From Halopseudomonas sabulinigri (GTDB lineage: Bacteria > Pseudomonadota > Gammaproteobacteria > Pseudomonadales > Pseudomonadaceae), in the NCBI RefSeq assembly GCF_900105255.1, contig NZ_LT629763.1, positions 3,187,001-3,251,000 of the forward strand: a stretch of 64,000 nt of DNA, in the 5' to 3' direction. Within the stretch, counting starts at the first letter, position 1; every line of letters starts with the position of its first letter. The notes under the pieces are model-generated. The model saw nothing but the letters and a program-made list of their open reading frames with translations. It ran no database searches and was not told the origin of the DNA. The translations under genes were made by a program, and so were the position numbers. Of the stretch, positions 29,015 to 47,685 are shown piece by piece.

Positions 29015-29032
29015 TTGAACACTGATGTCCAT
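29015..29032. promoter_or_regulatory. Degenerate copy of the TTGAACA-N4-TGTTCAA operator
   Basis: TTGAACA-CTGA-TGTCCAT differs from the two perfect palindromes at 32968 and 35402 in two positions of the right arm. It lies about 330 bases upstream of the amidohydrolase operon, in a 569-base gap (28794-29362) that otherwise holds one possible small gene. Confidence 0.45.
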
Positions 29033-29063
29033 TTCTGATAATTTGCAAAAGCAAGTTATTCGA

Positions 29064-29285
29064 TCATGCCGCTCGCTTTTTTTTGGCCGCAAGGCAAGGG
29101 CGAGCTAGATGCGGTGATGCGCCGATTGGAAGTGGCTGCTGCTTTCCGTCTGCCGGCTCGGAGTAGCTTGGTCGCTTAAGCGCTTGCAGTGTGCTGGCAA
29201 CCTTCTTGCTGTTGATTGCAGGTAGCGGAGCCGGGCTGAAGCGAGTGCCTACATAATAAAAATCACTACCCAGAGGCTGTGCCAT
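29064..29285 (-). CDS. Possible small proline-rich protein, unknown
   Basis: 73 residues from an ATG at 29285 with TAAGG upstream. The composition looks protein-like (GSDFYYVGTRFSPAPLP near the start, a Lys-rich KKKR end), and it occupies the otherwise empty gap before the operon at 29363, read divergently. I recognise no family. The frame stays open upstream to 29369. It may be spurious. Confidence 0.4.
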   Translation of the reverse strand: MAQPLGSDFYYVGTRFSPAPLPAINSKKVASTLQALKRPSYSEPADGKQQPLPIGASPHLARPCLAAKKKRAA

Positions 29286-29362
29286 GCCCTTACTTTTGAT
29301 TTCGCCGCGGTCCAGCGGCCGTTCGTCTTGGACCGGCACCCTTACGGTTTTGGGGGGCTGAA

Positions 29363-30436
29363 ATGACAATCAAGCAGGGACTGATCGACGTCCACCACCA
29401 CATTATTCCGCCGCTTTACGCCGAGGCGTTGCGCAAGTACGGACTGGATCTGCACGCCGGCATGCCGCTGCCGAAGTGGTCGCTTGAGCAGTCGCTGGAG
29501 GTCATGGAGATCAATGGCATCCAGTACGCCGTGACCTCGTTGACCACGCCCGGCGCGCATCTGGGCGGCGGCGTACAGCAGGCGGCGACCCTGGCGCGTC
29601 AGTGCAACGAGTACGCCGCTGAGCTACGCCAGCAGCAGCCGACGCGTTTCGGCAGCTTTGCGCTGCTGCCGCTGCCGTTCACCGAGGCCTCCTGCGCCGA
29701 GGCCATTTACGCGCTCGACGTGCTGGGTGCGGAGGGGGTGGTGGTGTTTAGCAGCAATGACGGCGTATTTCTTGGCGATCCGTCGCTGGATGAGCTGATG
29801 GCCGAGCTGGACCGCCGCGCGGCGGTGGTGTTTGTGCACCCCAACCTGCACAAGACCAGCGAGGAGCTGGGCTCGCCGCTGCCGGGCTTTCTGGTCGAGT
29901 TTCTCTGTGACACCACCCGCGCGGCAGTGAACCTGATCTTTAACGGCACCCTGCAGCGCTACCCACGCATTCGCTGGATTCTGGCCCACGGTGGAGGGTT
30001 TCTACCGGCGATCAGCGGTCGCCTTCAGGGCCTGGAGCAAACCGAGCGTTACCAGGCGCAGGGGCTCGACAGCGTCGACAGTTATCTGCGGGGTTTCTAC
30101 TACGACACCGCGCTCTCGCCGTCGCGCTATTCACAGGTGGCGTTGAAGCACCTGGTGCCGCAGACGCAGATTCTGTCTGGCTCGGATTTTCCCTTTGCCC
30201 CGGCGCCGCTGACGGCGTTGCAGCGTCAGACGTTGGACGAGAGCCCGTTGTGGGATGAGCGTCAGCGCTACGCCATTTATCGCGGCAACGCCATTGGCTT
30301 GTGGCCGGCACTGCGCCAAGCCGACGAGCAACCGGTTGCCGAGCCCATCGTCGTAGACGAGCCCTTCGCCCTGCGTCTCAAGCGCAGTTTGTCCAAACCC
30401 GTCGCGTCGCTGGTCGACGGCGTACGCAGCCGCTGA
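29363..30436 (+). CDS. Amidohydrolase-2 family metal-dependent hydrolase/decarboxylase
   Basis: 357 residues of the ACMSD/gamma-resorcylate decarboxylase type. Metal ligands are intact: H11 and H13 in DVHHHIIPP, H159 in FVHPNLH, H209 in LAHGGG and D275 in GSDFPFAP. Members decarboxylate or hydrolyse aromatic acids and ring-cleavage products with a single metal ion. GGGGGG precedes the ATG. It leads a short operon with its Tat-type paralogue and an OYE-like reductase, upstream of a TetR gene. An extra C-terminal tail of about 40 residues (EPIVVDEPFALRLKRSLSKP) is shared in style with the next gene. Confidence 0.85.
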   Translation: MTIKQGLIDVHHHIIPPLYAEALRKYGLDLHAGMPLPKWSLEQSLEVMEINGIQYAVTSLTTPGAHLGGGVQQAATLARQCNEYAAELRQQQPTRFGSFALLPLPFTEASCAEAIYALDVLGAEGVVVFSSNDGVFLGDPSLDELMAELDRRAAVVFVHPNLHKTSEELGSPLPGFLVEFLCDTTRAAVNLIFNGTLQRYPRIRWILAHGGGFLPAISGRLQGLEQTERYQAQGLDSVDSYLRGFYYDTALSPSRYSQVALKHLVPQTQILSGSDFPFAPAPLTALQRQTLDESPLWDERQRYAIYRGNAIGLWPALRQADEQPVAEPIVVDEPFALRLKRSLSKPVASLVDGVRSR

Positions 30437-30444
30437 GGGTCGTC

Positions 30445-31629: not shown

Positions 31630-31632
31630 CCC

Positions 31633-32874
31633 ATGACCGACCTGTTCCAACCGCTCACTCTGCCCAACGGGCAGCAGATTCCCAACCGCCTGGCCAAGGC
31701 TGCAACCGAAGAGAATCTGGCGGACAGCGAACACCAGCCTGGCAGTGCGCTGCGCACGCTTTATGGCACCTGGGCCGACGGCGGCGTGGGGCTGATTATT
31801 ACTGGTAACGTGATGGTCGACCGTCATGCGCTGACCGGGCCGGGGGGGGTGGTGCTGGAAGATGACCGCCAGTTGCCAGCGTTCCGCGCCTGGGCGAAGG
31901 CTTGCCGCAGCCACGGCGCGCAGGCGTGGATGCAGATCAACCATCCGGGGCGTCAGATGATGGCGGCGCTGGGCCAGCCGGCGCGCGGCCCCTCGGCAGT
32001 GTCGGTAGCAATTCCGGGCATGGAAAAGCTGTTTGCGGTGCCGCAAGCGCTCACTGAAGCCGAGATCGAAGGGATAATCCAGCGTTATGTCAACGCAGCC
32101 AAGCTGGCCGAGCAGGCAGGGTTTGCCGGGGTGCAGATTCACGCCGCGCACGGCTATCTGTTCAGCCAGTTTCTCTCACCATTGACCAACCAGCGCAGCG
32201 ATCAATGGGGCGGCACGCTGGAAAACCGCGCGCGCATTCTGCTACGTACAGTCGATGCAGTGCGCGCGGCGGTGTCGCGGCAGTTCTGTGTGGCGGTGAA
32301 ACTCAATTCGGCGGATTTTCAGCGCGGTGGCTTCGCGGTGGATGACGCCATTGCCGTGGTGCAGATGCTCAACGAGCGGGCGGTGGACCTGATTGAGCTG
32401 TCGGGCGGCAGCTACGAGAGTCCGGCGATGCAGGGCCAGTCCCGCGATGGCTCTACCTTGGCGCGCGAGGCTTACTTCCTGACCTTCGCTGAGCAGGTGC
32501 AGCAGGTCGCGCGCATGCCGCTGATGGTGACGGGCGGGGTGCGGCGGCCGCAGGTGGCACAGCAGGTGCTTGATAGCGGCATTGCCATGGTCGGTATGGC
32601 TACGGCCCTGGCGCTGCAGCCCGATCTGCCCAGGCGTTGGCGCAGCGGTGAAAGGATCGCGGTTGAGCCGGTGCGGGTGAACTGGAAAAACCGCACCCTG
32701 GCGTCGGTGGCTACCCAGGCTATCGTCAAGAAGCAACTGGTGCGGCTAAGCCAGGGCAAGCCGACCAAGGTCAAGGTGTCGCCGTTGCTGGCGCTGGTGA
32801 CCAGCCAGCTGAAAATCAAGCGTCAATCAAAGCGCTACCGTCGCTGGGTCGCGGACGTCGACCAGCGGGATTGA
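31633..32874 (+). CDS. Old yellow enzyme-family NADH:flavin oxidoreductase
   Basis: 413 residues. The FMN barrel signatures are present: LPNGQQIPNRLAKAATEENLAD at the start, WMQINHPGRQ (family His), HAAHGYLFSQFLSPLTNQRSDQWGGTLENR and VTGGVRRPQVAQQ near the phosphate site. It is a single-domain member without the C-terminal FeS/FAD part of 2,4-dienoyl-CoA reductase. The C-terminal 60 residues are basic. It would reduce an activated double bond, such as an enone of an aromatic or steroid-like intermediate. It starts 3 bases after the previous stop, so it is co-translated. Confidence 0.88.
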   Translation: MTDLFQPLTLPNGQQIPNRLAKAATEENLADSEHQPGSALRTLYGTWADGGVGLIITGNVMVDRHALTGPGGVVLEDDRQLPAFRAWAKACRSHGAQAWMQINHPGRQMMAALGQPARGPSAVSVAIPGMEKLFAVPQALTEAEIEGIIQRYVNAAKLAEQAGFAGVQIHAAHGYLFSQFLSPLTNQRSDQWGGTLENRARILLRTVDAVRAAVSRQFCVAVKLNSADFQRGGFAVDDAIAVVQMLNERAVDLIELSGGSYESPAMQGQSRDGSTLAREAYFLTFAEQVQQVARMPLMVTGGVRRPQVAQQVLDSGIAMVGMATALALQPDLPRRWRSGERIAVEPVRVNWKNRTLASVATQAIVKKQLVRLSQGKPTKVKVSPLLALVTSQLKIKRQSKRYRRWVADVDQRD

Positions 32875-32967: not shown

Positions 32968-32985
32968 TTGAACATTGTTGTTCAA
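32968..32985. promoter_or_regulatory. Perfect operator TTGAACA-N4-TGTTCAA upstream of the TetR gene
   Basis: Perfect 7-bp arms with spacer TTGT, 37 bases before the TetR start codon. It recurs with spacer CTGT at 35402-35419 between the divergent monooxygenase and dioxygenase genes, and in degenerate form at 29015. Position and symmetry fit an autoregulated TetR-family operator. The half-site ATTGTTGTTC also appears at 47695 after the acyl-CoA dehydrogenase gene. Confidence 0.75.
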
Positions 32986-33021: not shown

Positions 33022-33627
33022 ATGACAGCAGCACAGCGACGCATCCACGAGGCCGCCCTCAAGTTATTTGCCGAAAAGGGCATTGGCGAAGTCAATGTCA
33101 GCGCCCTTGCCGAGGCCGCCGGGGTCGCCCGGGGTACCATCTACAACAATCTGGACAGTATTGAGTCACTGTTTGAGAAGGTGGCCAAGGAATTGAGCGA
33201 GGAAATGATCGTGCGGGTGGCGCTGAGTCTGCCTGCCGACGTTGAACCTGCGCAGCGGCTTGCCACCGGCATCCGCTTCTATATTCGCCGGGCGCATGAC
33301 GAACCCAGTTGGGGGCGTTTTTTGGTGCGCTACGGATTCAGCTCCGAGGCCCTACGCAGCATGTGGTCTGGTCAGCCGCTCGCTGATCTGCAGGATGGCC
33401 TGCAGCGTGGTGCCTATGACTTTGAGCCGGAACAGGCTACGTCAGTACTGGCGCTGATCGCCGGTGGCGTGCTGACTGCCATGATCCTGGTGCAGGAGGG
33501 GCGCAAGACCTGGCGCGATGCCGGTAGCGATGTGGCGGAGATGCTGCTGCGGGCGGTCGGGGTTGAGTCGCGGCAGGCTCAGAGCCTGGCCCGCGACGAA
33601 TTGCCGGCGTTGGTTGAGGCGGCCTGA
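33022..33627 (+). CDS. TetR-family transcriptional regulator
   Basis: 201 residues from the ATG at 33022. An in-frame TTG at 32968 is rejected because it lies in the palindrome. The N-terminal helix-turn-helix reads AALKLFAEKGIGEVNVSALAEAAGVARGTIYNNLDSIESLF. The C-terminal ligand domain is unassigned. It lies between the amidohydrolase/OYE operon and the convergent monooxygenase gene, next to a perfect palindrome, and probably represses the whole 29-47 kb catabolic island until an intermediate binds. Confidence 0.88.
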   Translation: MTAAQRRIHEAALKLFAEKGIGEVNVSALAEAAGVARGTIYNNLDSIESLFEKVAKELSEEMIVRVALSLPADVEPAQRLATGIRFYIRRAHDEPSWGRFLVRYGFSSEALRSMWSGQPLADLQDGLQRGAYDFEPEQATSVLALIAGGVLTAMILVQEGRKTWRDAGSDVAEMLLRAVGVESRQAQSLARDELPALVEAA

Positions 33628-33662: not shown

Positions 33663-35294
33663 TCACTCTGTTTCCAGTTGACGCAGGCATGAGCTGAGCA
33701 GGCGGTTGGCATCGCCATCCTCGGCGCAAGCCATGATGATGCGGTCGGGGCGTACGACACAGAGCATGCCTTCGGGTGCTTTATCCAGCAGGCTTTGGGG
33801 AGCTTGCGCCACCATCGTTCCTGTTCCTGTTCCTGTTCCTGTTCCTGTTCTGGCGCAGCTATCGTTTTGCCGCGCCAGTTGCACGAACCCTCCGCCCATC
33901 TGCTCCCAGCGTCGGCGCAGGCTTGGCCCCAGATGTCGAGCGGGATCACTCTGAAAGCCGACCAATGTAAGCTGGTCGTCGAGCAAGCTGTCACTCAGGG
34001 CAATGTCACCAGTGGAGAGTCTCACGCCGGCCTGTGGAAACAAGCCGCCACAGATCAGCTGTCCACGCTGTTTTGCAGGGATAAATAGCCCCTGTTTGAA
34101 TACGTTCTTGGGCTTGATCTCCATTTCCTCGAAACGCCGCCTGGCCGCGGGGATGGTGCGCATCAGCTTCATCATGCCGTGCGACAAAATAGCCGCCGGC
34201 ACGGTGCGCGGCATCACCAGTTTGCCCATGAACTTGGCCAGGTTGATCATCTCGTGGGCGTGCGGGCGCCGCTCTTGGTCGTAGCTGTCGAGGATGCTCC
34301 GTGCGACGCGTCCCTGTAGTACCCAAGCGAGCTTCCAGGCCAGGTTGGCGGCATCGCGCAGGCCAGCTACCAGCCCCTGACCGACAAAGGGTGGGGTGAT
34401 GTGTGCGGCATCGCCAATCAGAAAGATATCGCCCTTGCTGAACGCGCTGCAGCAGCGCGCGTGAAAGCGGTACACCGCCTTGCGCTCGATCTGCAGCTGA
34501 TCGGCGGGTATCCAGCGTGCCAGTAGCTTGGCGACCTGTTCGCTGCTTTCCATGTAGGCCTGGTCTTCGCCGTCGCGCAGCATGAACTCCCAGCGCTCGC
34601 GTCCGCCCGGTGCCGGCATGTGCGGGGTCGGGCGGCGGTGGTCACAGAGAAACTCGACGTGGTCGATCGCCTTGCCCTCGCGGCCACGGGCGTCGACGAT
34701 CAGCCAATTCTCGCTGTAACTCTCGCCCTCGAAGTCCTGCCCGATCAGGCTGCGAACCAGTGAGCTGGCGCCGTCGGCGCCGACCACAAAGCGTGCCTCA
34801 AGTTGGTGTTCAATGCCGTTCTCGTCGCGCATCCGGGCGAGCACGCCCTTGGCTTGCTGCTGCAAATCAAGTAGCTCCAGGCCGGTTGCGGGGCGCACGC
34901 AATCGTAGCTGGCGTAACGTGCGCGCAGAGCGTGTTCAAGGTCTGGCTGATAGAAGGTCACCAGTTTGGGGTGGCCGTCCAGGCTGCCGCTGGTATTGGC
35001 GCGGCTGAACTCGCCCAGCATCGGGCAATGCATGCGTACCTGCGGAATCACAATGCGCTCGAAGGCGTCTTCGCTGAGACCCATTTGCTGCAGGATGCGC
35101 AAGGCCTCGTTGTCCAGCGCGATGGCACGTGGCATCAGCAGGACATCATGGACCTTGTCGATGACCAGAGTATTGATGCCCAGACGGCCGAGCAAGGTAG
35201 CCATGCCGGCGCCAACCGGACCGTTGCCGACCAGCAGCACGTCCACGGAGGTAGGCAGGGGGGCGGAGTTTTTATTGTTCATTTGCAGACCCAT
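33663..35294 (-). CDS. FAD-dependent aromatic monooxygenase (MhpA/phenol hydroxylase-like)
   Basis: 543 residues. FAD motifs are clear: VDVLLVGNGPVGAGMATLLGRLG near residue 17 (GxGxxG-like), the DG motif VVGADGASSLVRSLIG and GDAAHITPPFVGQGLVAGLRDAANLAWKLAWVL (GD motif, about residue 300). This is the class A flavin monooxygenase pattern of 3-(3-hydroxyphenyl)propionate hydroxylases, which add OH ortho to a phenol to make a catechol. The next divergent gene, an extradiol dioxygenase, would cleave it. A (Thr-Gly)5 tract from a hexanucleotide repeat lies near residue 485. Either ATG 35294 or 35282 may be used; neither has a strong ribosome binding site. Confidence 0.88.
   Translation of the reverse strand: MGLQMNNKNSAPLPTSVDVLLVGNGPVGAGMATLLGRLGINTLVIDKVHDVLLMPRAIALDNEALRILQQMGLSEDAFERIVIPQVRMHCPMLGEFSRANTSGSLDGHPKLVTFYQPDLEHALRARYASYDCVRPATGLELLDLQQQAKGVLARMRDENGIEHQLEARFVVGADGASSLVRSLIGQDFEGESYSENWLIVDARGREGKAIDHVEFLCDHRRPTPHMPAPGGRERWEFMLRDGEDQAYMESSEQVAKLLARWIPADQLQIERKAVYRFHARCCSAFSKGDIFLIGDAAHITPPFVGQGLVAGLRDAANLAWKLAWVLQGRVARSILDSYDQERRPHAHEMINLAKFMGKLVMPRTVPAAILSHGMMKLMRTIPAARRRFEEMEIKPKNVFKQGLFIPAKQRGQLICGGLFPQAGVRLSTGDIALSDSLLDDQLTLVGFQSDPARHLGPSLRRRWEQMGGGFVQLARQNDSCARTGTGTGTGTGTMVAQAPQSLLDKAPEGMLCVVRPDRIIMACAEDGDANRLLSSCLRQLETE
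33817..33850. repeat. Hexanucleotide simple repeat inside the monooxygenase gene
   Basis: Five complete GTTCCT units and a partial sixth on the plus strand, encoding alternating Thr-Gly on the minus strand. A six-base unit changes length without shifting the frame, so copy number may vary between strains with little harm. The tract lies in a poorly conserved loop of the C-terminal domain. Confidence 0.9.
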
Positions 35295-35401: not shown

Positions 35402-35419
35402 TTGAACACTGTTGTTCAA
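35402..35419. promoter_or_regulatory. Perfect operator TTGAACA-N4-TGTTCAA in the divergent promoter
   Basis: TTGAACA-CTGT-TGTTCAA lies 108 bases upstream of the monooxygenase start and 103 bases upstream of the dioxygenase start, so it could control both directions. It is identical in its arms to the site before the TetR gene. A flanking AT pair extends the palindrome to 35401-35420. Confidence 0.75.
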
Positions 35420-35521: not shown

Positions 35522-36613
35522 ATGACAATAGACAACGCTCCAGTCGCCTTGCGCTGTGAACAGCCACGTCGACACCCGCACCCGACCGTTAAGGCGCAGG
35601 CGATCACGCACTTGATATTCGAGCGGCCTGACCTGGATCGAGCCGAAGCCTTTCTGACTGATTTCGGATTGATCCCGGTCAGCCGCGTTGCCGATTGCCT
35701 GTACTTTCGTGGCACCGGTGCTGCGCCTTATGTCTACCGCGTTCATCGCGGCAGCCAGGCGCGTTTCGTCGGTTTCGGCCTGAGTGTGGACAGTGTTGCT
35801 GATCTGGAGCGCCTGGCCGCCTTGCCGGGTGCCTCTGCGATCAAAGACAGTCCGCATCCGGGGGGTGGGCATGCGCTCAGCCTTAACGACCCATCCGGCT
35901 TTCTCGTGGAAGTACTTTCCGGGCAGCGTCGGGTACCTGAGCTCGCGCATCGGTCGGCCCTGGCGTTCAATGCAGTTGATGCGCTACCGCGCATCAACAG
36001 TACGCAGCGGCCGCCTATTGCTCCGGCAGAAGTTATCCGGCTGGGGCATGTAGTGCTGGAATTGGCGGATTTTCAAGCCACCTGTGCCTGGTACACCCAG
36101 CACTTCGGCTTCATTCCCAGCGATGTACAACTGCTGCCAGACGGCTCTCCTGCAGTCGCCTTCATGCGTTTGGATCTGGGTTCTACTCCCGCTGACCACC
36201 ACACCCTGGCGCTCGCTCAGACCTTTATGGCTGCTTACAGTCACAGCGCTTTTGAAGTGGTAGACGCGGACGCGGTTGGTATGGGGCAACGGGTACTGGC
36301 TGAGCGTGGCTGGAAGCACGCTTGGGGTATGGGGCGACACATTCTCGGTAGCCAGATTTTTGATTACTGGCAGGACCCTTGGGGCGACAAGCACGAGCAT
36401 TATTGCGATGGCGACCTGTTTACCGCCGAGCGTCCTACGGGCTACCACCAAGTTAGCCCCGACGCGATGGCCCAATGGGGTCAGCGCATGCCCAAGAGCT
36501 TTACCAAACCACGCATGAACGGTGCCGCCTTCAAGGCGTTGCTGGTCAACCTGCGGCGCAGTCCGGATGTGACGCTACGCAAGCTGATCACCATGGCCCG
36601 GATGTTCGGTTAA
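35522..36613 (+). CDS. Two-domain extradiol (VOC) ring-cleavage dioxygenase
   Basis: 363 residues with two VOC modules, residues 25-140 and 170-305. The C-terminal module has the full metal triad of type I extradiol dioxygenases: H176 (RLGHVVLEL), H241 (SHSAFEVVD) and E292 (KHEHYCDGD), with spacings of 65 and 51 that match BphC. Fe(II) or Mn(II) would catalyse meta-cleavage of a catechol, probably the product of the divergent flavin monooxygenase. The C-terminal 60 residues are basic. It opens an operon leading into the FAH-type hydrolase and CoA ligase genes. Confidence 0.87.
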   Translation: MTIDNAPVALRCEQPRRHPHPTVKAQAITHLIFERPDLDRAEAFLTDFGLIPVSRVADCLYFRGTGAAPYVYRVHRGSQARFVGFGLSVDSVADLERLAALPGASAIKDSPHPGGGHALSLNDPSGFLVEVLSGQRRVPELAHRSALAFNAVDALPRINSTQRPPIAPAEVIRLGHVVLELADFQATCAWYTQHFGFIPSDVQLLPDGSPAVAFMRLDLGSTPADHHTLALAQTFMAAYSHSAFEVVDADAVGMGQRVLAERGWKHAWGMGRHILGSQIFDYWQDPWGDKHEHYCDGDLFTAERPTGYHQVSPDAMAQWGQRMPKSFTKPRMNGAAFKALLVNLRRSPDVTLRKLITMARMFG

Positions 36614-39650: not shown

Positions 39651-41477
39651 ATGAATACAAGAACAATATGTGCTTTTCCTGTCTTCCTCGGGTTGTGCGG
39701 CGTCTTTGCAACGCCGGCCTTTGCGCTGAATTTCACCCTGGGCGAGGTTGAAGGGCAGCTCGACTCGGTGCTGTCGATTGGCTCCAGCTGGTCGACCCAG
39801 TCACGCGAGCAAGAGCTGCTGGCATCCAGTGGCGATGATGGGCGCCGCAACTTCGACAAGGGCGATGCCTTTTCCACGGTTTTCAAAGGTATCCATGACC
39901 TGGATCTGCGCTATCACGACTCCGGGGTCCTGGTGCGTGGCCGCTATTGGTACGATTTCGAGCTGGCCGACGGCGATCATCCGTTCAAGGAGATCAGCGA
40001 CGACGGCCGCGCGAATATGGCCCAAAGCTCCGGCTTTCAGCTGCTGGATGCGTTCTTCTATCACAACTACCAGGTCGGTGATCTGGGCGGTACCGTGCGT
40101 ATCGGCCGGCAGGTGATCAACTGGGGCGAGAGTACCTTTATTCGTGGCGGCATCAATGGCATGAATCCGGTAGACATCTCGGCCCTGCGCCAGCCGGGCG
40201 CCGAGATCAAGGAAGGTTTGTTGCCGGCAAATACCTTCTTTATCTCCCAGGCACTGACCGACAGTTTCACGCTGGATGCTTTCTACCAATTTGAATGGCA
40301 GAAGACGGTGGTCGATAACTGCGGCACTTTCTTCGCTGCTAACGACTTCGTCGCCGACGGTTGTGGCGGCGCCACCGTTGGCCCGGTGCTGGACCAGAAC
40401 GCCATTGCTCAGGCGGCGCTGAGCCCTTTTGGTGTCAACTTGACCAGCGAAGGTGTTGAAATCAAACGCATGCGCGACAAGGAGCCGCGAGACAGCGGGC
40501 AGTTCGGGGTCGCCGGGCGTTGGTATGTTGGCAGTCTCGATGCCGAGATTGGCGCCTACTTCGCCAACTACCATAGCAAGCAGCCCTACGTCAGCTCGCG
40601 CTTCAGTCCGAATGTGGAGGACACCGCGTTTGTACCGCAGCTGTGTGCCAACGTCGGGCTGGCAGGGCCAGCTTGTGGTGCGCTGATGGGCAGCCAGCTT
40701 GGGCCGGCACTGGTGGCGGCCTATCGTATGGGTACCGCCGGGTATTACATCGATTACCCCGAGGACATCCGTCTCTATGGCCTGAGCTTTAGCACTGCGC
40801 TGGATATTGGTACCAGCCTGGCGGGGGAGATCAGCTACCGGCCAAACATGCCGATCCAGCTCAACTCCGTGGATCAGACCATCGCGGCCGTCGGCATTCC
40901 GGCTAACACCCCGTTGCTGTCATCGGGCGAATATACCGCGACCAATAACGGCTTCTTCAACGGCTACCAGCGCAAGGAAGTCACCCAGGCGCAGATGACC
41001 GCTATCCACATGTTCGACCGCGTGATGGGCGCTGATCGCTTTACGCTGATCGCCGAGGCGGGGGCAACCTATGTTGGCGGCCTGGAAGGTAAGGGCGGGC
41101 TGCGCTATGGCCGTGCCAACACCTTTGGCCAGGGCGAACTCTACCCCGATAACAGCTTGTGCGGCGGCCCCCATTGCAATGACGAGGGCTTTGTCACCGA
41201 CTTCTCTGCCGGATATCGCATGCGCGGCGTGTGGGATTACAGCAGCCTGATTGCCGGGGTGGAACTGCGCCCAAGCGTGACCTGGTCGCATGACGTTTAT
41301 GGCTATGCCCCCTCGCCAGGCTTCGAGGAAGGCGCCCGTGCCATCGCGCTGGGCGTTGATGCGACCTACTTGAACCAGTATGGCGCCGGTATCAGCTACA
41401 CCAACTTCTTTGGCGGCAAGTACAACACTGCCGTAGATCGCGACTTTCTGTCGCTCAGCTTCAGCGTGTCCTTCTAA
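39651..41477 (+). CDS. DUF1302-family outer-membrane protein
   Basis: 608 residues with a signal peptide (about 25 residues, ending TPAFALN) and a beta-rich body ending in SLSFSVSF, a C-terminal Phe typical of outer-membrane barrels. Regions such as IGRQVINWGESTFIRGGINGMNPVDISALRQPG are characteristic of DUF1302. These proteins occur with DUF1329 partners in Pseudomonas and other degraders of sterols, aromatics and hydrophobic acids, and are thought to help substrate uptake. AAGGAAAG precedes the ATG. A DUF1329 gene follows after 9 bases. Confidence 0.9.
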   Translation: MNTRTICAFPVFLGLCGVFATPAFALNFTLGEVEGQLDSVLSIGSSWSTQSREQELLASSGDDGRRNFDKGDAFSTVFKGIHDLDLRYHDSGVLVRGRYWYDFELADGDHPFKEISDDGRANMAQSSGFQLLDAFFYHNYQVGDLGGTVRIGRQVINWGESTFIRGGINGMNPVDISALRQPGAEIKEGLLPANTFFISQALTDSFTLDAFYQFEWQKTVVDNCGTFFAANDFVADGCGGATVGPVLDQNAIAQAALSPFGVNLTSEGVEIKRMRDKEPRDSGQFGVAGRWYVGSLDAEIGAYFANYHSKQPYVSSRFSPNVEDTAFVPQLCANVGLAGPACGALMGSQLGPALVAAYRMGTAGYYIDYPEDIRLYGLSFSTALDIGTSLAGEISYRPNMPIQLNSVDQTIAAVGIPANTPLLSSGEYTATNNGFFNGYQRKEVTQAQMTAIHMFDRVMGADRFTLIAEAGATYVGGLEGKGGLRYGRANTFGQGELYPDNSLCGGPHCNDEGFVTDFSAGYRMRGVWDYSSLIAGVELRPSVTWSHDVYGYAPSPGFEEGARAIALGVDATYLNQYGAGISYTNFFGGKYNTAVDRDFLSLSFSVSF

Positions 41478-41486: not shown

Positions 41487-42848
41487 ATGAAAACCCGTAT
41501 TTCCTTGCTTTCTGTACTAGCGCTTGCGCTGGCGGCTGCGCAGGCCAACGCGGCCGTGTCGGCTGATGAAGCCGCTCAATTGGGCGCAAGCCTCACACCC
41601 ACTGGCGCTGAGCGTGCCGGCAATGCCGACGGCTCTATACCTGAGTGGACCGGCGGCCTGCCAGAGAACGCCGGCAGCGTGGATGCCGCCGGCCGCCCTG
41701 CCAACCCTTATGCTAACGAGCAACCGCTGTTTGTCATCACAGCGGCTAATATGGATCAGTACCAAGCTCTGTTGAGCGACGGTCACAAGGCCATGCTGCG
41801 CCGCTATACCGACAGCTTCCGCCTGCCGGTTTATGCTAGCCACCGCAGTGCGGCGTTGCCTCAGTCGGTCTACGATGCGATTGCGCAAAACGCCGTAAAG
41901 ACCACCATGGTGGATGGTGGCGCCGGGCTGAAGAACTTCTCTATCGCCACGCCTTTCCCAATCCCCAAGGCGGCCAAGGAGGTGGTTTGGAACCACATTG
42001 GTCGATATCGCGGTGGCAGTGCACGCCGTCAGGTAATTCAGACAGCGCCGCTGGTCGATGGCACCTTTGTGCCGGTGCTGATGCAGCAGCAGTTCAGCTA
42101 CCGCGACCAGTTGAAGGACTTTGATCCGGCCAACCCGGACAATGTGCTGTATTACTTCATGCAGGAAATCAAGTCGCCAGCGCGGTTGTCCGGCAGCATC
42201 GTGCTGGTTCACGAAACGCTGGATCAGGTCAAGGAGCCACGGCGAGCCTGGCTCTACAATGCTGGCCAGCGCCGTGTACGTCGTGCGCCGCAGGTATCCT
42301 ATGACGGCCCTACTCCGGCCACAGACGGCCAGCGGGTTGCCGACAATCTGGACATGTTCAACGGCGCGATGGACAAGTACGACTGGGAGCTTAAAGGCAA
42401 GCGCGAGGTGCTGATGCCCTATAACAACTTCCAGATCGACTCTCCGAGCCTGAGCTATGACGATTTGATTCAGCCCGGACACCTCAACCCTGATGCCCTG
42501 CGTTACGAGCAGCACCGGGTCTGGGTGGTAGAAGCCACCCTAAAGCCGGACGAGCGTCATATCTACGCCAAGCGGGTGTTCTATATCGACGAGGACACCT
42601 GGCAGATCTCGCTGGCCGAGCAATACGATGCACGGGGACAACTGTGGCGGGTTTCGGAGGGCTTTATGATTCCACTGTATGACCGCAAGATTCCCTGGTT
42701 AGCCGCTGAGTCTATCTCTGACCTGCTCAATGGGCGCTATTCGGTATTCGGGCTGCGTAACGAAATCAACAGTCCGATCGAGTTCGGATTTACTGCCAGT
42801 TCATCGGAATACACGCCTAACGCGCTGCGTAACTCTGGCGTTCGGTAG
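41487..42848 (+). CDS. DUF1329-family periplasmic/lipoprotein-like protein
   Basis: 453 residues with a signal peptide cleaved after AQANAAV (about residue 22). The DUF1329 core is seen in LGASLTPTGAERAGNADGSIPEWTGG, AWLYNAGQRRVRRAPQVSYD and ERHIYAKRVFYIDEDTWQISLAEQYDARGQLWR. It has the LolA/LolB-like beta-sheet pattern and is the standard partner of DUF1302 proteins, probably shuttling a hydrophobic substrate across the periplasm. AAGGAGG precedes the ATG. A strong terminator follows. Confidence 0.9.
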   Translation: MKTRISLLSVLALALAAAQANAAVSADEAAQLGASLTPTGAERAGNADGSIPEWTGGLPENAGSVDAAGRPANPYANEQPLFVITAANMDQYQALLSDGHKAMLRRYTDSFRLPVYASHRSAALPQSVYDAIAQNAVKTTMVDGGAGLKNFSIATPFPIPKAAKEVVWNHIGRYRGGSARRQVIQTAPLVDGTFVPVLMQQQFSYRDQLKDFDPANPDNVLYYFMQEIKSPARLSGSIVLVHETLDQVKEPRRAWLYNAGQRRVRRAPQVSYDGPTPATDGQRVADNLDMFNGAMDKYDWELKGKREVLMPYNNFQIDSPSLSYDDLIQPGHLNPDALRYEQHRVWVVEATLKPDERHIYAKRVFYIDEDTWQISLAEQYDARGQLWRVSEGFMIPLYDRKIPWLAAESISDLLNGRYSVFGLRNEINSPIEFGFTASSSEYTPNALRNSGVR

Positions 42849-42889: not shown

Positions 42890-42916
42890 GCCGCCCGGTA
42901 TCGGGCGGCTTTTTTT
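42890..42916 (+). terminator. Rho-independent terminator after the DUF1329 gene
   Basis: GCCGCCCG (42890-42897), loop GTAT, CGGGCGGC (42902-42909), then seven T. It separates the dioxygenase-to-DUF1329 transcript from the sulfatase gene, which should have its own promoter or rely on read-through. Confidence 0.9.
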
Positions 42917-42968: not shown

Positions 42969-44948
42969 ATGTTCCGCTTTTGTGCGTTGTCCAGAGGCTG
43001 CCTCAAGCTGTCGATACTGCTGTTGTGTACCCTGACGGCCGTCACTGCGCAGGCTCGTTCTGAAAAGCCCAATGTGCTGTTCATCGTGGCCGATGACTTG
43101 GGCTTCAGTGATATCAGCCCTTTTGGCGGTAGCGAGATTCATACCCCGAACTTGCAGCGCTTGGCCGAGCAGGGTGTGGCATTTACCAACTTCCACACGC
43201 TGCCCACCTGCGCGCCCACGCGCTCGGTGCTGCTGACTGGCGCGGATAATCACTTGGCCGGCAAGGGCGCGCAAGTCATTACCCCGGAGCAGCAGGGGCA
43301 CGATGGCTATGAAGGACACCTCAACGACCGTGTGGTGACCTTGGCTGAAGTGCTCGGCAAGGCCGGTTATCGCACCTATTTCTCTGGCAAGTGGCATCTG
43401 GGCGATGAGCCTGAATATGCGCCGTTCAATCGTGGCTTTCAGGAATCCTTTGCGCTGTTGCCAGGCGGTGCCAGCCATTACGCTGACATGCGCCCGCTGC
43501 ATCCGGCTGAGCCTGTGGTCTATACCCGCAACGGCAAGATTGTTGATAGTTTGCCAGCGGATTTTTACTCAACCCGCAACTACACGGACTACCTGATTGA
43601 CTGGCTGCAACGCGACGCTGCCAGTGATCAGCCGTTCTTTGCCTATCTTGCCTACACCGCACCGCATGACCCCTTGCAGGCACCGGAGGAGTACATCCGC
43701 AAATATGACGGTGTTTACGACGAGGGATACGGGAAACTGCGTGCAGAGCGCTACGAACGGCTCAAAGCGCTTGGTGTCTTCGCCGACGTGCCGCTGCCAC
43801 CGTGGCCGGAGCTGATTGCCGAGTGGGACTCGTTGCCCGAGTCTGAAAAAGCCCTGCGACGTCGCGACATGCAGATCTACGCCGCCATGATCGATTACAT
43901 GGACGAGCAGATTGGCCGCGTGCTCGACGTGCTGCAGCAGCAGGGCCAATTGGATAACACCTTGATTGTGTTTTTGAGCGACAACGGTGCCAACGGTACG
44001 CCACCGAAGATCTATCCGGCGCATACCCGCGCCTTCCATGAGAGCTTTGATAACAGCCTGGAAAATCGCGGTGCGCCTGGCTCTTTCGCCTCGCAGGGAC
44101 CGGGCTGGGCGACGGCCAGCGGCGGTGGCCTGAACCTATTCAAGTATTTCGTCTATGAGGGTGGAATCCGCACGCCGGCCATCATGGTCTTGCCCGGTGC
44201 GCAGCAAGCGGGCATTCGGTCGGCTGCGTTCACGCACGTAAGGGATATCGTGCCCACGGTATTGGATGCTGTGCATCTCGTGCACCCTGGTCAGCAGGAT
44301 TCTAGTTTGGCCCCGCTGGAAGGGCGCACGCTGCTTCCGCTGCTAAGGGGTAAGACTGCTTCGACGACACCCTACGAAGTGGGTTACGAGTTGCATGGCT
44401 CGCGTGCTTACATCCGCGATAATTGGAAGGTGGTGCAGTCGGCAATACCCGCTGGAACAGGGCAGTGGCAGCTGTTTGATTTGAGTTCTGATCCGGCTGA
44501 GGTAAACGATCTGGCAGGTGAATACCCTGAAAGGCTTGCTGAACTCAAGCGAGCGCAGGCCGCCTACGAGCAAAAAAACGGTGTGATCTACAGCCCACCA
44601 GGATTCATCAGCAAAGCGCAGATGCTCAGCGCCATCCTGCTCTGTTTATTGGCAGCGGGTGCATTGCTGCAAATACTGCTGCAGCTGCGCACTGGCAGTA
44701 CAAGAAGTGTGTTGCGGCTGTTGTCTGCCGGCATACGGATAGCTCTATCTGCAGCGCTGCTGATGGATTGGCGTATTGGTCTTTTCTACTTGCTGTGCGG
44801 TCTGCAGCTGATTGATCTGTTGATGGCTTTACGGGGGCAGCGTTGGCTGCGTGCGCTACTTGGCGGTGGGTTGTTGCTGCTGGTAGTGGCGCTTGTCTGT
44901 TTACTGCATTCAGGGCTGGGTCTTTGGGTGCTTCTGCAGGACTACTGA
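42969..44948 (+). CDS. Sulfatase with C-terminal membrane domain
   Basis: 659 residues. After a hydrophobic N-terminus (signal or anchor, residues 8-28) comes the alkaline phosphatase-like sulfatase domain with ADDLGFSDISPFGGS (metal site), C81 in CAPTRSVLLTG (the Cys converted to formylglycine, with Thr in place of the usual Ser at position 4), GKWHLGD and FLSDNGANGTPP. Residues 550-659 hold three or four membrane helices (MLSAILLCLLAAGALLQILL to LLLLVVALVCLL), an unusual addition. It would remove sulfate from an ester in the periplasm, anchored to the inner membrane. No dedicated formylglycine-generating gene is seen nearby. Confidence 0.88.
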   Translation: MFRFCALSRGCLKLSILLLCTLTAVTAQARSEKPNVLFIVADDLGFSDISPFGGSEIHTPNLQRLAEQGVAFTNFHTLPTCAPTRSVLLTGADNHLAGKGAQVITPEQQGHDGYEGHLNDRVVTLAEVLGKAGYRTYFSGKWHLGDEPEYAPFNRGFQESFALLPGGASHYADMRPLHPAEPVVYTRNGKIVDSLPADFYSTRNYTDYLIDWLQRDAASDQPFFAYLAYTAPHDPLQAPEEYIRKYDGVYDEGYGKLRAERYERLKALGVFADVPLPPWPELIAEWDSLPESEKALRRRDMQIYAAMIDYMDEQIGRVLDVLQQQGQLDNTLIVFLSDNGANGTPPKIYPAHTRAFHESFDNSLENRGAPGSFASQGPGWATASGGGLNLFKYFVYEGGIRTPAIMVLPGAQQAGIRSAAFTHVRDIVPTVLDAVHLVHPGQQDSSLAPLEGRTLLPLLRGKTASTTPYEVGYELHGSRAYIRDNWKVVQSAIPAGTGQWQLFDLSSDPAEVNDLAGEYPERLAELKRAQAAYEQKNGVIYSPPGFISKAQMLSAILLCLLAAGALLQILLQLRTGSTRSVLRLLSAGIRIALSAALLMDWRIGLFYLLCGLQLIDLLMALRGQRWLRALLGGGLLLLVVALVCLLHSGLGLWVLLQDY

Positions 44949-45014
44949 GCAAGTGCTGCTGTATCCAAGTGTATTGATATATCTCAGATGGGCGCAGAGA
45001 CAGGGGCCGGATAG

Positions 45015-45800
45015 ATGAATGACAAAGTTTGCCTGACCTGTCAGGGCGACGTGCTTTGCATTGGGCTTAACCGGCCTGACAAGCTGAATGCCATGGATAT
45101 TGATCTCTATGTGCAACTGGCAGAGGCCTATGGCCGGTTGGATGGCGACCCTTCACTCCGCTGCGGCGTGCTCTACGCAGAAGGGGCTCACTTCACTGCC
45201 GGGCTGGAGTTGGACCAATGGGCTGAACAGTTCCGAAAGGGATGTTTCCCTAAGCTGCCAGCTGTCGCTTGCGATCCTTTCGGTCTGGACCCTGATCGAC
45301 GGCTATCCAAACCCATGGTGGTTGCAGTGCAAGGTATCTGTTTTACCGCCGGGTTGGAGCTCATGTTGGCCGGCGATATCAGGGTCGCCTCCGAGGATTG
45401 CCGCTTTGGCCAGATTGAGGTGAAGCGCGGGCTTTATCCAGTGGGCGGCGCGACTGTGCGCTTTATCCAGAATATGAGCTGGGGCAATGCAATGCGCTAC
45501 CTGCTGACCGGCGATGAGTTCTGCGCCCGGGAAGCGTACCGGCTTGGGCTGGTTCAAGAGGTGTGTGAGGTTGGTCAGGCATTCGAGCGGGCGCTAGATA
45601 TCGCGCAGCGCATTGCCCGGCAGGCGCCGCGTGCCGTTCTGCAGACGCTGAGCAGTGCGCGGAAATCGCTGGATGAGGGCGGACTGGAGGCTATTGATCG
45701 GCTCATTCCCGATCTGCTGCCGCTCCTTGGTAGTGAGGACTTTTCTGAAGGCGTAGCTTCTTTCCTTGAGCGCCGGCCGGCCCGTTTTGTAGGGCGTTGA
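45015..45800 (+). CDS. Enoyl-CoA hydratase/isomerase (crotonase) family protein
   Basis: 261 residues with the crotonase fold: GLNRPDKLNAMD (substrate loop), GAHFTAGLELDQWAEQF, GICFTAGLELMLAGDIRVASEDCRFGQIEVKRG. Both positions of the catalytic glutamates (GLELML and GQIEV) are acidic. It could hydrate a 2-enoyl-CoA in side-chain oxidation. The ribosome binding site is weak. A C-terminal fragment of a related crotonase lies downstream at 47765-47857. Confidence 0.87.
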   Translation: MNDKVCLTCQGDVLCIGLNRPDKLNAMDIDLYVQLAEAYGRLDGDPSLRCGVLYAEGAHFTAGLELDQWAEQFRKGCFPKLPAVACDPFGLDPDRRLSKPMVVAVQGICFTAGLELMLAGDIRVASEDCRFGQIEVKRGLYPVGGATVRFIQNMSWGNAMRYLLTGDEFCAREAYRLGLVQEVCEVGQAFERALDIAQRIARQAPRAVLQTLSSARKSLDEGGLEAIDRLIPDLLPLLGSEDFSEGVASFLERRPARFVGR

Positions 45801-45888
45801 ATTTTCTATGGTTAGCGCTGCCGCCCTGCCAGCAGGTGTGAGCCGCGAGCGACTGTATTTCAATTAGTTGGATTTCTACGAGGTAAAT

Positions 45889-47685
45889 ATGAGCATCAGG
45901 CTGCTGAACGAGCGCGAGCTGAACTTCCAGCTATATGAAGTGCTGGATACGGAAGCACTGCTGCAGCGACCGCGTTATGCAGAGCATGACCGCGCCGTAT
46001 TTGACGCGACACTGGAAACGGCGCGGGCTATAGCGACCGACTATCTTGCTCCGCACAATCAGAAGGGGGACGCCAACGAGCCGACATTTGATGGTGAAAA
46101 GGTGACCCTGATTCCGGAAACCAAGGTCGCATGGGCTGCCTTGTCGCAGGCTGGCTTTCATGCCGCGCACCACGATGCAGAGTATGGCGGTTTGCAGTTA
46201 CCAGAGGTAATTCTGCGTACCTGTGTGGCCTATTTTTCTGCTGCCAATATCGCCACGGCGGCCTATTCCTTTTTGACAATAGGCGCGGCTAACCTGGTAA
46301 AAAGCTTTGCCAGCGATGCCCTGCGCGATCGTTTTCTGCCGCCGATGCTGGATGGTCGTTACAGTGGCACCATGGCGCTGACCGAGCCAGGCCAGGGTTC
46401 GGCTTTGGGCGACATACGAACCTCCGCGCGCCAGAGCGCGGATGGGAGCTATCGCGTTTTTGGTCAGAAAATGTTCATTTCCGGTGGTGACCATGAGCTG
46501 ACCGAGAACATTGTGCACATGGTGTTGGCACGCATAGAGGGCGCGCCAGCCGGGGTCAAGGGCATTTCCTTGTTTCTGGTACCCAAGGTGCTGGTGAATG
46601 ACGCAGGTCATCTTGGCAAACGTAATGATGTGGCCTTGGCGGGGCTGCTGCACAAGATGGGGTATCGCAATACCACCTCAACGGTGCTCAGCTTCGGCGA
46701 GCAGGGCGGCGCGGTGGGATACCTGGTCGGTGAGCCCAATAAGGGCCTGTCATACATGTTCCAGATGATGAACGAAGCACGTATCGGCGTCGCCCTCGGT
46801 GCATCGGTCCTGGCGTACCAGAGCTACCTGCATGCGCTGGATTATGCCCGCGAACGCCCACAGGGACGAGCCCCTGCGAGCAAGGATCCGCTATCGCCTC
46901 AAGTGCGTATTGTTGAACATGCGGACGTTCGGCGGATGCTGCTGCAACAGAAAGTCTATGCAGAAGGCAGTCTGAGTCTGTGCCTGTACGCCAGCAGCCT
47001 GTTCGAGGACGCCCACACCGCGCCGACCGCTTCCGCCCGTGAAGATGCGGCCGAGCTGCTTGATTTACTGATCCCGATGGTTAAATCCTACCCGTCAAAA
47101 TACGGCGTCCTGGCCTCGGATCTGGGTATTCAGATACTGGGGGGCTCAGGTTACATCCGTGAATACCCCTTGGAGCAGTACTACCGAGACAACCGTCTGA
47201 ATCCTATTCACGAAGGTACCGAAGGCATTCACGGGCTTGACCTGCTGGCGCGAAAACTTAGCCAGCGCGGTGGCAAGGGGTATCGCCTGTTTCTGCAGGC
47301 TGCACGCAGCAGTATTGAAAGTGCCTCTGGCGCGTGTACTGAAATAGCCGCAGCACTGGCAGACGCGCTCGCTATCCTCGAACAAGTTAGTACTGACCTG
47401 CTGGCGCAGGTGAACGCGAATACAGATGCTGGGCTCGCCAACGCCACGGCTTATCTGGACTTATTCGGGCGAGTGCTGGTCGGTTGGATCTGGTTGCGCC
47501 AGGCCATGGTTGCCGACCGGGCGTTGGAGGCCGGCACAGGCAGCGATGAAACAGCCTTTTATCAAGGCAAAATCCATGCGGCGCGCTATTTCATGAACTG
47601 GGAACTGGCTGGTCTCGCGAGTCAGGCACGTTTGCTCAGTGCAGGAGACAGTTTGACCTATGACATGCAGGATAAGTGGTTTTAA
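45889..47685 (+). CDS. Large acyl-CoA dehydrogenase (FadE/DmdC type)
   Basis: 598 residues from the ATG at 45889, preceded by GAGG; the frame extends slightly upstream to a TTG. Motifs are MALTEPGQGSALGDIRTSA (FAD/substrate), FGQKMFISGGDHELTENIVHMVLARIEG, EARIGVALGASVLAYQSYLHALDYARER and NPIHEGTEGIHGLDLLARK with the catalytic Glu region of long ~600-residue acyl-CoA dehydrogenases such as DmdC. It probably oxidises the CoA ester made by the ligase at 37663. It closes the catabolic island before the insertion-sequence remnants. Confidence 0.9.
   Translation: MSIRLLNERELNFQLYEVLDTEALLQRPRYAEHDRAVFDATLETARAIATDYLAPHNQKGDANEPTFDGEKVTLIPETKVAWAALSQAGFHAAHHDAEYGGLQLPEVILRTCVAYFSAANIATAAYSFLTIGAANLVKSFASDALRDRFLPPMLDGRYSGTMALTEPGQGSALGDIRTSARQSADGSYRVFGQKMFISGGDHELTENIVHMVLARIEGAPAGVKGISLFLVPKVLVNDAGHLGKRNDVALAGLLHKMGYRNTTSTVLSFGEQGGAVGYLVGEPNKGLSYMFQMMNEARIGVALGASVLAYQSYLHALDYARERPQGRAPASKDPLSPQVRIVEHADVRRMLLQQKVYAEGSLSLCLYASSLFEDAHTAPTASAREDAAELLDLLIPMVKSYPSKYGVLASDLGIQILGGSGYIREYPLEQYYRDNRLNPIHEGTEGIHGLDLLARKLSQRGGKGYRLFLQAARSSIESASGACTEIAAALADALAILEQVSTDLLAQVNANTDAGLANATAYLDLFGRVLVGWIWLRQAMVADRALEAGTGSDETAFYQGKIHAARYFMNWELAGLASQARLLSAGDSLTYDMQDKWF

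What the first reader, a model, noticed from the sequence alone, without database searches (positions are those of the whole stretch)
29015..47685. A TetR-controlled catabolic island for an unidentified, possibly sulfated, aromatic or polycyclic acid
One stretch encodes a flavin hydroxylase, extradiol dioxygenase, FAH-type hydrolase, CoA ligase, acyl-CoA dehydrogenase, crotonase, OYE-type reductase, ACMSD-like amidohydrolase plus an exported paralogue, the DUF1302/DUF1329 pair, and a membrane sulfatase. The set reads as envelope capture, periplasmic desulfation, side-chain beta-oxidation and meta-cleavage. I know of no named pathway with this exact gene set. The enzyme families are established knowledge; the joint pathway and the sulfated substrate are inference.
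Basis: partly seen in the sequence, partly recalled or inferred. Interest (0 to 1): 0.85.

Follow-up and report, generated by a model that had tools for sequence, protein, structure and literature searches.

The report
Sulfatase-linked aromatic ring-cleavage regulon
A Pseudomonas-family genome carries an apparently acquired, repressor-controlled gene set that probably strips sulfate from a greasy phenol, opens its ring and feeds the pieces to central metabolism; the chemistry class is known, the sulfate-linked version and its true food molecule are not.

Summary
The core (TetR, FAD hydroxylase, VOC-type extradiol dioxygenase, FAH hydrolase, acyl-CoA synthetase, in part of the relatives also OYE, amidohydrolase, DUF1302/DUF1329) recurs in Pseudomonas; its dioxygenase-hydrolase-ligase heart also in Burkholderia and others. 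I found a likely operator, TTGAACA-N4-TGTTCAA; its exact core occurs twice in the whole genome, both times in the island. The sulfatase link holds: P. kuykendallii has the same cluster with two sulfatases, each with an exact operator core upstream, and 5 of 12 close sulfatase relatives share contig lengths with cluster genes (0 of 30 distant ones). The terminal crotonase and acyl-CoA dehydrogenase are not conserved partners.

Best reading: a regulon for a hydrophobic, resorcinol-type phenol: hydroxylation, extradiol cleavage, FAH splitting, CoA activation of the released acid. Support: the published triad hcdABC works on such a ring; some sister clusters carry a pyrogallol-hydroxytransferase-like molybdenum enzyme beside or instead of the flavin hydroxylase; three distant clusters annotate a beta-keto-acid cleavage protein. 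I found no support for a polycyclic acid or beta-oxidation before ring cleavage. The exported amidohydrolase has four of five metal-ligand positions substituted. The substrate is unproven. New variant of a known kind.

The parts
29015..29032 (.). Operator-like site 1, 2 mismatches to TTGAACA-N4-TGTTCAA, upstream of amidohydrolase A
29363..30436 (+). Amidohydrolase A (ACMSD family, no signal seen by eye); five metal-ligand positions intact (HHHHD; ligand positions recalled)
   Evidence: Pfam PF04909, alignment; best PDB relative is an uncharacterised metal-dependent hydrolase (2f6k, 135 bits), then ACMSD, 5-carboxyvanillate and gamma-resorcylate decarboxylases at 44-60 bits
30445..31629 (+). 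Amidohydrolase paralogue B with RRxF twin-arginine-like N-terminus; four of five ligand positions substituted (H Q L E A), probably catalytically dead
31633..32874 (+). Old-yellow-enzyme family oxidoreductase
   Evidence: PF00724
32968..32985 (.). Operator site 2, exact palindrome, upstream of tetR
33022..33627 (+). TetR repressor (start chosen at the ATG after the operator; the ORF-list start 32968 lies in the operator)
   Evidence: PF00440 and PF21306, sequence
33663..35294 (-). Group A FAD monooxygenase (aromatic ring hydroxylase)
   Evidence: PF01494, NCBIfam subfamily NF004829 over cut-off
35402..35419 (.). Operator site 3, exact palindrome, between the divergent hydroxylase and dioxygenase genes
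35522..36613 (+). Two-domain VOC-type (type I) extradiol dioxygenase; H176, H241, E292 (taken as metal ligands from recalled motifs) identical in at least 80 of 81 sequences
36704..37663 (+). FAH-superfamily hydrolase
   Evidence: PF01557
37663..39561 (+). Acyl-CoA synthetase (NCBIfam subfamily NF005714, over cut-off)
39651..41477 (+). DUF1302 protein, probable outer-membrane barrel
   Evidence: PF06980, low-confidence strand-rich model
41487..42848 (+). DUF1329 protein, signal-like N-terminus by eye
   Evidence: PF07044, sequence
42890..42909 (+). Terminator-like hairpin (8 G-C pairs) followed by seven T, between DUF1329 and sulfatase; the scan as a whole is not above its shuffles (21 found, shuffles mean 17.4, sd 5.4)
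42969..44948 (+). S1 sulfatase with formylglycine motif CAPTR at residue 81, N-terminal signal-like and C-terminal hydrophobic segments (crude hydropathy scan)
45015..45800 (+). Crotonase-family protein; attached by position only
45868..47685 (+). Acyl-CoA dehydrogenase; close orthologues elsewhere in the genus, attached by position only

Best explanation
A TetR-repressed, apparently horizontally acquired regulon for using a hydrophobic aromatic compound with a resorcinol-type (1,3-dihydroxy) or otherwise polyhydroxylated ring, met at least partly as its sulfate ester. Proposed order: (1) the sulfate ester is cut by the membrane-anchored sulfatase facing the periplasm; (2) DUF1302/DUF1329 carry the hydrophobic phenol across the outer envelope; (3) if the ring bears a carboxyl group, amidohydrolase A removes it; (4) the FAD hydroxylase adds a third hydroxyl, giving a vicinal diol; (5) the dioxygenase cuts next to the diol, giving a tri-oxo acid; (6) the FAH enzyme splits that chain into a small oxo-acid and a carboxylic (or beta-keto) acid carrying the substituent; (7) the acyl-CoA synthetase activates this acid for ordinary beta-oxidation. 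TetR senses the substrate or an intermediate. Shown by computation: gene content, conservation, catalytic residues, operator, sulfatase operators in a relative. Inferred: ring type, order of steps, direction of transport, roles of OYE and of paralogue B. My favoured substrate within the class is a phenolic lipid such as an alkylresorcinol or alkylresorcylic acid (about 0.3); the 0.6 below is for the class-level statement.
For: Core conserved across genera. Dioxygenase residues H176, H241, E292 invariant. Published precedent hcdABC: FMO, type I extradiol dioxygenase and FAA hydrolase turn 3-(2,4-dihydroxyphenyl)propionate into the 2,3,5-trihydroxy ring, open it and consume the product; the final hydrolysis products are the authors' proposal (PMC6222606). 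Ring type: sister clusters carry a Mo enzyme whose large subunit scores 920 bits to pyrogallol hydroxytransferase. Two Cupriavidus plasmids have dioxygenase-FAH-ligase followed by the Mo pair in one (L088) and by the FAD hydroxylase in the other (L137). Of 9 annotated, less similar dioxygenase clusters viewed, 3 (L084, L085, L091) hold an annotated 3-keto-5-aminohexanoate (beta-keto acid) cleavage protein. Hydrophobicity: FadL in 41 of 80 loci, the DUF1302/1329 pair in 20, both in 3, neither in 22. Sulfate: both sulfatase genes of P. kuykendallii have exact operator cores in front; sulfatase relatives of 55% identity or more share contig lengths with cluster genes in 5 of 12, lower ones in 0 of 30; formylglycine-enzyme-family genes in the genome. 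Regulation: operator counts.
Against: No substrate shown. In this window the sulfatase has no operator of its own and follows a terminator-like hairpin. Of 398 family genomes only 2, the own among them, hold the close sulfatase while 37 hold the dioxygenase, so most clusters manage without it. The FAD/Mo exclusivity inside 10-kb flanks (60 FAD only, 12 Mo only, 1 both, 7 neither, of 80) is partly a flank artefact: 6 of the 12 Mo-only loci have the FAD gene elsewhere in the genome, in 3 seen cases just beyond the flank; C. oxalaticus also has a FAD gene elsewhere on the same plasmid. Nineteen of 80 loci have no operator-like site at up to two mismatches. The nearest solved relatives of the CoA synthetase are feruloyl-, fatty-acyl- and coumaroyl-CoA ligases at nearly equal scores, so a fatty chain is not favoured over an aryl chain. 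OYE has no firm role. Sequence homology to HcdA, HcdB, HcdC was not tested.
Confidence: 0.6

Rival explanations
1. A flavonoid or isoflavonoid A-ring pathway of the fde/ifc type, perhaps for sulfated flavonoids of seagrass: C8 hydroxylation, A-ring cleavage, then CoA activation of the released phenylpropanoid.
For: Published fde/ifc pathways use a FAD monooxygenase and a glyoxalase-type dioxygenase on the A ring, and IfcA homologues occur in Pseudomonas and Burkholderia (PMC11069340). The CoA synthetase's nearest solved relatives include feruloyl- and coumaroyl-CoA ligases. Seagrass flavonoid sulfates are recalled, not from a call.
Against: No cupin (IfcD type) among the 20 ORFs scanned from 25370 to 52209; the pyranone step of ifc uses cupins, here there is an FAH enzyme. 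FadL and DUF1302/1329 fit a more lipid-like substrate. FdeC and IfcB sequences were not compared.
Confidence: 0.2
2. The sulfatase serves sulfur scavenging and only happens to sit in the island; the ring-cleavage cluster has nothing to do with sulfate esters.
For: Nearest solved relative is an arylsulfatase (1hdh, 465 bits; that it is P. aeruginosa AtsA is recalled). Sulfate-transport-like genes lie upstream at 22503-26452. A terminator-like hairpin separates the sulfatase from the operon. Sulfatase present in 1 of 80 loci.
Against: P. kuykendallii has two sulfatases in the same cluster at another position, both with exact operator cores. Contig-length sharing in 5 of 12 close relatives against 0 of 30 distant ones.
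Confidence: 0.2
3. A classical 3-(3-hydroxyphenyl)propionate / hydroxycinnamate (Mhp) pathway, as automatic annotation of the hydroxylase says.
For: Databases name the hydroxylase family MhpA. Two alpha/beta hydrolases, the fold of MhpC (recalled), lie just upstream of the island (26609-28895).
Against: Score below all four MhpA equivalog cut-offs (best 448.8 against 546). About 31% identity to E. coli mhpA products. The ring-cleavage enzyme is VOC type, and none of the scanned island ORFs is an MhpD, MhpE or MhpF homologue.
Confidence: 0.05
4. A steroid-estrogen or other polycyclic pathway: A-ring 4-hydroxylation, meta-cleavage, CoA activation, with estrogen sulfates as natural substrate.
For: Logic resembles published estrogen clusters (search listing only; details recalled), and a sulfatase would suit estrone sulfate.
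Against: No steroid dehydrogenase or cytochrome P450 among the scanned ORFs. In the rows shown no steroid-specific NCBIfam model reached its cut-off; HsaC scored 30 against 450 for the dioxygenase.
Confidence: 0.05

Closest known systems
hcdABC, 7-hydroxycoumarin / 3-(2,4-dihydroxyphenyl)propionate pathway of Pseudomonas mandelii 7HK4 (PMC6222606; abstract, outline and passages seen)
   Same: Same enzyme triad in one operon: group A FAD hydroxylase, type I extradiol dioxygenase, FAA-family hydrolase; trihydroxy ring opened next to the diol, then hydrolysed.
   Different: No CoA ligase, OYE, amidohydrolase, DUF1302/1329 or sulfatase mentioned in the passages seen; sequence homology not tested.
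fde (Herbaspirillum) and ifc (Variovorax) naringenin / isoflavone A-ring pathways (PMC11069340; sections 15-17 and 19 and passages seen)
   Same: FAD monooxygenase plus glyoxalase-type ring-cleaving dioxygenase on the A ring.
   Different: ifc proceeds through a pyranone and cupin enzymes; here FAH and CoA ligase; no sulfatase mentioned in the parts seen.
Orcinol pathway and mhq methylhydroquinone pathway
   Same: Trihydroxytoluene to 2,4,6-trioxoheptanoate, the chemistry proposed here (intermediates named in passages of PMC8571283; the rest recalled).
   Different: Short methyl substituent; no envelope, ligase or sulfatase genes known to me.
Pyrogallol hydroxytransferase (transhydroxylase, 4v4c)
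   Same: A close relative is present in some sister clusters.
   Different: Not among the island's genes; there the FAD hydroxylase is the only ring hydroxylase seen.
Arylsulfatase 1hdh (AtsA of Pseudomonas aeruginosa, organism recalled)
   Same: S1 sulfatase, 465 bits over 516 residues, C-x-P-x-R motif.
   Different: Here a signal-like N-terminus and about 110 mostly hydrophobic C-terminal residues; operators in front of the relatives' genes in P. kuykendallii.

Membership tests
FMO-extradiol-FAH triad pathways (hcd type) | Adjacent group A FAD hydroxylase, type I extradiol dioxygenase and FAA hydrolase | tested here: met
FMO-extradiol-FAH triad pathways (hcd type) | Metal ligands of the dioxygenase (2-His-1-carboxylate; motif recalled) | tested here: met
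   H176, H241, E292 identical in at least 80 of 81 sequences
FMO-extradiol-FAH triad pathways (hcd type) | Acts on a resorcinol-type ring | not testable with these tools
   indirect only: Mo enzyme and beta-keto-acid cleavage protein in sister clusters
FMO-extradiol-FAH triad pathways (hcd type) | Sequence homology to HcdA, HcdB, HcdC | not tested
   no call fetched these sequences
Mhp 3-hydroxyphenylpropionate pathway | Hydroxylase over an MhpA equivalog cut-off | tested here: not met
   448.8 against 546 and 292.9, 284, 258.4 against higher cut-offs; only subfamily NF004829 passes (408.9 against 390)
Mhp 3-hydroxyphenylpropionate pathway | MhpB-type dioxygenase and MhpD/E/F enzymes in the cluster | tested here: not met
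   VOC-type dioxygenase, none of the others among the scanned island ORFs; alpha/beta hydrolases of the MhpC fold lie only upstream
ifc isoflavone cluster | Cupin IfcD acting after ring cleavage | tested here: not met
   no cupin among the 20 ORFs scanned from 25370 to 52209
ifc isoflavone cluster | Hydroxylase and dioxygenase homologous to IfcA and IfcB | not tested
   no call fetched these sequences
S1 formylglycine sulfatase | C-x-P-x-R motif and sulfatase domain | tested here: met
   CAPTR at residue 81; PF00884 199 bits
S1 formylglycine sulfatase | Formylglycine-generating enzyme in the genome | tested here: inconclusive
   PF03781: 3 matches over the cut-off, in what look like 2 genes; family membership does not prove the maturase activity
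ACMSD-like metal amidohydrolase | Metal ligands in A | tested here: met
   HHHHD (ligand positions recalled)
ACMSD-like metal amidohydrolase | Metal ligands in exported paralogue B | tested here: not met
   H Q L E A in the window; H Q Q N G in L048 and H N Q D G in L063; intact in L001, L002, L046
TetR-operator regulon | Shared palindrome at the cluster's promoters, exact core not elsewhere in the genome | tested here: met
   exact core 2 times in 4.03 Mb, both in the island; with one mismatch 7 further places outside it; binding not tested

The most novel reading that the evidence does not exclude
A dedicated regulon for sulfated phenolic lipids (for example sulfated alkylresorcinols or alkylresorcylic acids): one repressor controls surface desulfation, envelope uptake, ring opening and release of the fatty chain, with an exported, catalytically dead amidohydrolase kept as a periplasmic binding or shuttle protein. 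I know of no described catabolic route for such sulfates, and my literature searches showed none (open-access library).
Probability: 0.22. Interest if true: 0.68.

Novelty: new variant of a known kind. Interest (0 to 1): 0.48.

Why it matters
If right, it links periplasmic desulfation to aromatic ring cleavage under one operator. It gives a short list of substrates to test for a cluster whose dioxygenase is in 37 of 398 sampled Pseudomonas-family genomes and in Burkholderia and others, and whose hydroxylase is now labelled 'MhpA' by default. It also offers a marker (TTGAACA-N4-TGTTCAA) for finding the regulon, an apparent case where a molybdenum hydroxylase can stand in for a flavin hydroxylase, and an exported pseudoenzyme whose role can be asked directly.

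Tried and rejected
Mutual exclusion of FAD and Mo hydroxylases looked clean inside 10-kb flanks but weakened when whole genomes and extended flanks were searched; I keep only the weaker claim.

Structure prediction of paralogue B without an alignment was useless (pLDDT 37; the stretch submitted began one codon late, 393 residues). DUF1302 with ten sequences gave a strand-rich but low-confidence model (pLDDT 51); no fold search was run on either.

Estrogen and Mhp readings were set low for lack of marker genes. The idea that crotonase and dehydrogenase belong to the acquired island was dropped: close dehydrogenase orthologues (86-87%) sit in 6 of the other 36 genomes of the genus, none of which has the dioxygenase; four of those places show no other island gene nearby. 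Close crotonase relatives (67-70%) occur in 4 other family genomes, none of them among the dioxygenase holders. Sulfatase co-occurrence alone in 398 genomes is weak (1 of the other 397); position, operators and contig lengths carry the argument. In the contig-length test, relatives on contigs under 8 kb were dropped before counting, all lists were capped at 120, and one dioxygenase length missed was added with the same result.

A stricter, non-palindromic form of the site was found exactly in no locus other than the window's own stretch (1 of 144 loci), so only the palindrome is conserved. The promoter scan was not above its shuffles (5 found, mean 6.4).

Two of my notes are wrong and are corrected here: entry 1 says paralogue B lost all five ligand positions (it keeps the first His), and entry 2 counts L034 among the loci with the FAD gene just outside the flank (it lies on another contig).

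Rfam (gathering threshold) and tRNA scans of the window found nothing. Literature searches on alkylresorcinol, sorgoleone and sulfatase plus meta-cleavage gave no matching pathway; the library is open-access only.


Full report
Observation. Two starts need correcting. TetR most likely starts at the ATG at 33022, because the listed TTG start at 32968 lies inside an operator. The exported amidohydrolase starts at about 30445, with a KRREF twin-arginine-like N-terminus.

How general it is. A scan of named genomes with the dioxygenase gave 190 relatives, of which the best 80 were kept. In their fetched flanks lie FAH (80 of 80), acyl-CoA synthetase (76), a TetR relative (61), FAD hydroxylase (61), OYE (32), DUF1302 (21), DUF1329 (20), amidohydrolase A (13) and sulfatase (1); crotonase and dehydrogenase in none (at least 35% identity; some loci are cut by contig ends). 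The figure for amidohydrolase B in that call (12) includes cross-hits to A; an RRxF-bearing paralogue was seen in 5 of the 80 loci (L001, L002, L046, L048, L063). Hosts are mostly Pseudomonas, then Burkholderia, Paraburkholderia, Ralstonia, Pandoraea, Solimonas, Alcanivorax, Nevskia and a Myxococcales bin. An Agrobacterium plasmid carries amidohydrolase, OYE, FAH, ligase, TetR and hydroxylase together. Of 37 genomes of the window's genus only the own one has the dioxygenase at E up to 1e-60; in the family it is in 37 of 398 at E up to 1e-150. So the island looks like a recent arrival in this genus, and the core is a widespread module.

Operator. The palindrome TTGAACA-N4-TGTTCAA is exact at 32968 (before tetR) and at 35402 (between hydroxylase and dioxygenase), and has two mismatches at 29015 (before amidohydrolase A). 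The core TGAACA-N4-TGTTCA occurs exactly twice in the 4.03-Mb genome, both here, and in G070 exactly four times, all in the cluster; with one mismatch allowed there are 10 places in each genome against 2 and 3 for the reversed control pattern, and in the own genome 7 of the 10 lie outside the island, five of them one repeated sequence. Base composition predicts 0.04 to 0.18 exact matches per genome at 55-65% G+C. In the 80 loci there are 126 sites with up to two mismatches, in 61 loci; five shuffled sets gave 5, 1, 4, 1 and 2. Of the 126, 120 lie close to the start of a cluster gene and 116 near a TetR-family gene; 19 loci have none.

The sulfatase. There the cluster is the same gene for gene from amidohydrolase A to DUF1329, apart from the place of TetR. 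Two sulfatases (58% and 40% identical) lie upstream around TetR, each with an exact operator core in front. Equal lengths are strong but not absolute proof of one contig. In the window itself the sulfatase follows a terminator-like hairpin and has no operator of its own, so its co-expression here is inferred. All three sulfatases keep C-x-P-x-R and a hydrophobic C-terminal segment; a hydrophobic N-terminal segment was flagged in the window's protein and the 58% one, not in the 40% one. The genome has formylglycine-enzyme-family genes. The closest named relative is from Halopseudomonas pachastrellae (82%).

What kind of ring. (a) The published hcdABC operon has the same triad and acts on 3-(2,4-dihydroxyphenyl)propionate through a 2,3,5-trihydroxy ring (PMC6222606; outline, abstract and passages seen); the products of the last hydrolysis were proposed, not identified. 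(b) In 13 of 80 loci a two-subunit molybdenum enzyme is present. Its large subunit scores 920 bits against pyrogallol hydroxytransferase. Residues I recall as active-site (His144, Asp174, Trp176, Tyr404, Tyr560) are kept, while Arg153 is Tyr; that numbering rests on memory and the printed alignment. Of 12 loci with the Mo enzyme and no FAD enzyme in the flank, 6 genomes have no FAD enzyme at E up to 1e-100 and 6 do; in 3 extended flanks it sits just beyond. (c) Three of nine annotated, less similar dioxygenase clusters viewed carry an annotated beta-keto-acid cleavage protein. Together these point to a polyhydroxylated ring yielding an oxo-acid chain. (d) FadL in 41 loci and the DUF1302/1329 pair in 20, rarely both (3), point to a hydrophobic substrate; 22 loci show neither. 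DUF1302/1329 proteins of P. putida were essential for Tween 20 use in transposon data (PMC10866462, passages).

Order of steps. The CoA synthetase travels with dioxygenase and FAH (76 of 80), which fits activation of the acid that FAH releases. The beta-oxidation genes at the end of the window's cluster have other histories: the dehydrogenase has 86-87% orthologues in six other genomes of the genus without the dioxygenase, and the crotonase's close relatives are in genomes without it. They may still serve, but nothing ties them to the regulon.

The exported amidohydrolase. A has the five ligand positions (HHHHD); exported B has H Q L E A. B is also degenerate in L048 and L063 but intact in L001, L002 and L046, with the RRxF N-terminus in all six. 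So the catalytic site was lost while the export signal and length were kept: a pseudoenzyme, perhaps a binding protein. This is inference.

Against my reading. No substrate is shown; the ligase does not discriminate fatty from aryl acids; OYE is unexplained; most clusters lack a sulfatase; the published triads were not compared by sequence. Flavonoid-type rings (PMC11069340, sections 15-17 and 19 and passages seen) remain a serious rival.

Verdict. The finding is real and better supported than its author could show, but the polycyclic-acid and beta-oxidation-first parts should be dropped. It is a new, sulfate-linked variant of a known ring-cleavage chemistry.

Noticed in passing
L142:2574-4619, L143:4093-6138; also L029:1447-3582, L042:1628-4003: A second dioxygenase-FAH pair (42-46% identical to the window's in L142 and L143) beside the molybdenum hydroxylase in some Pseudomonas clusters.
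   Followed up: partly
L138:3950-5058: In the Agrobacterium larrymoorei plasmid the dioxygenase seems replaced by, or split into, two overlapping VOC reading frames.
   Followed up: no
window 22503-26452: Sulfate/thiosulfate-type ABC transporter genes lie upstream of the island, followed by an alpha/beta hydrolase (26609-27499) found in none of the other 36 genomes of the genus at E up to 1e-50.
   Followed up: partly
L134:9717-11297 (G070): An Amidohydro_1/3 protein in G070 (P. kuykendallii by inference) has a one-mismatch operator core just upstream and may be a further regulon member.
   Followed up: no
G000:C1:201599, 833758, 2968090, 3587259, 3590379: Five places in the own genome with one identical one-mismatch operator-like sequence, probably inside a repeated element.
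   Followed up: no
P0037, P0050, P0126, P0129: Some records named Pseudomonas aeruginosa carry dioxygenase and hydroxylase relatives (72% and 63-64% identity).
   Followed up: no
L141:3000-9421: In the genome of L009 (P. akapageensis) cupins, a CoA-transferase, a crotonase, an AtuA protein and an acyl-CoA dehydrogenase lie between the Mo hydroxylase and the FAD hydroxylase.
   Followed up: partly
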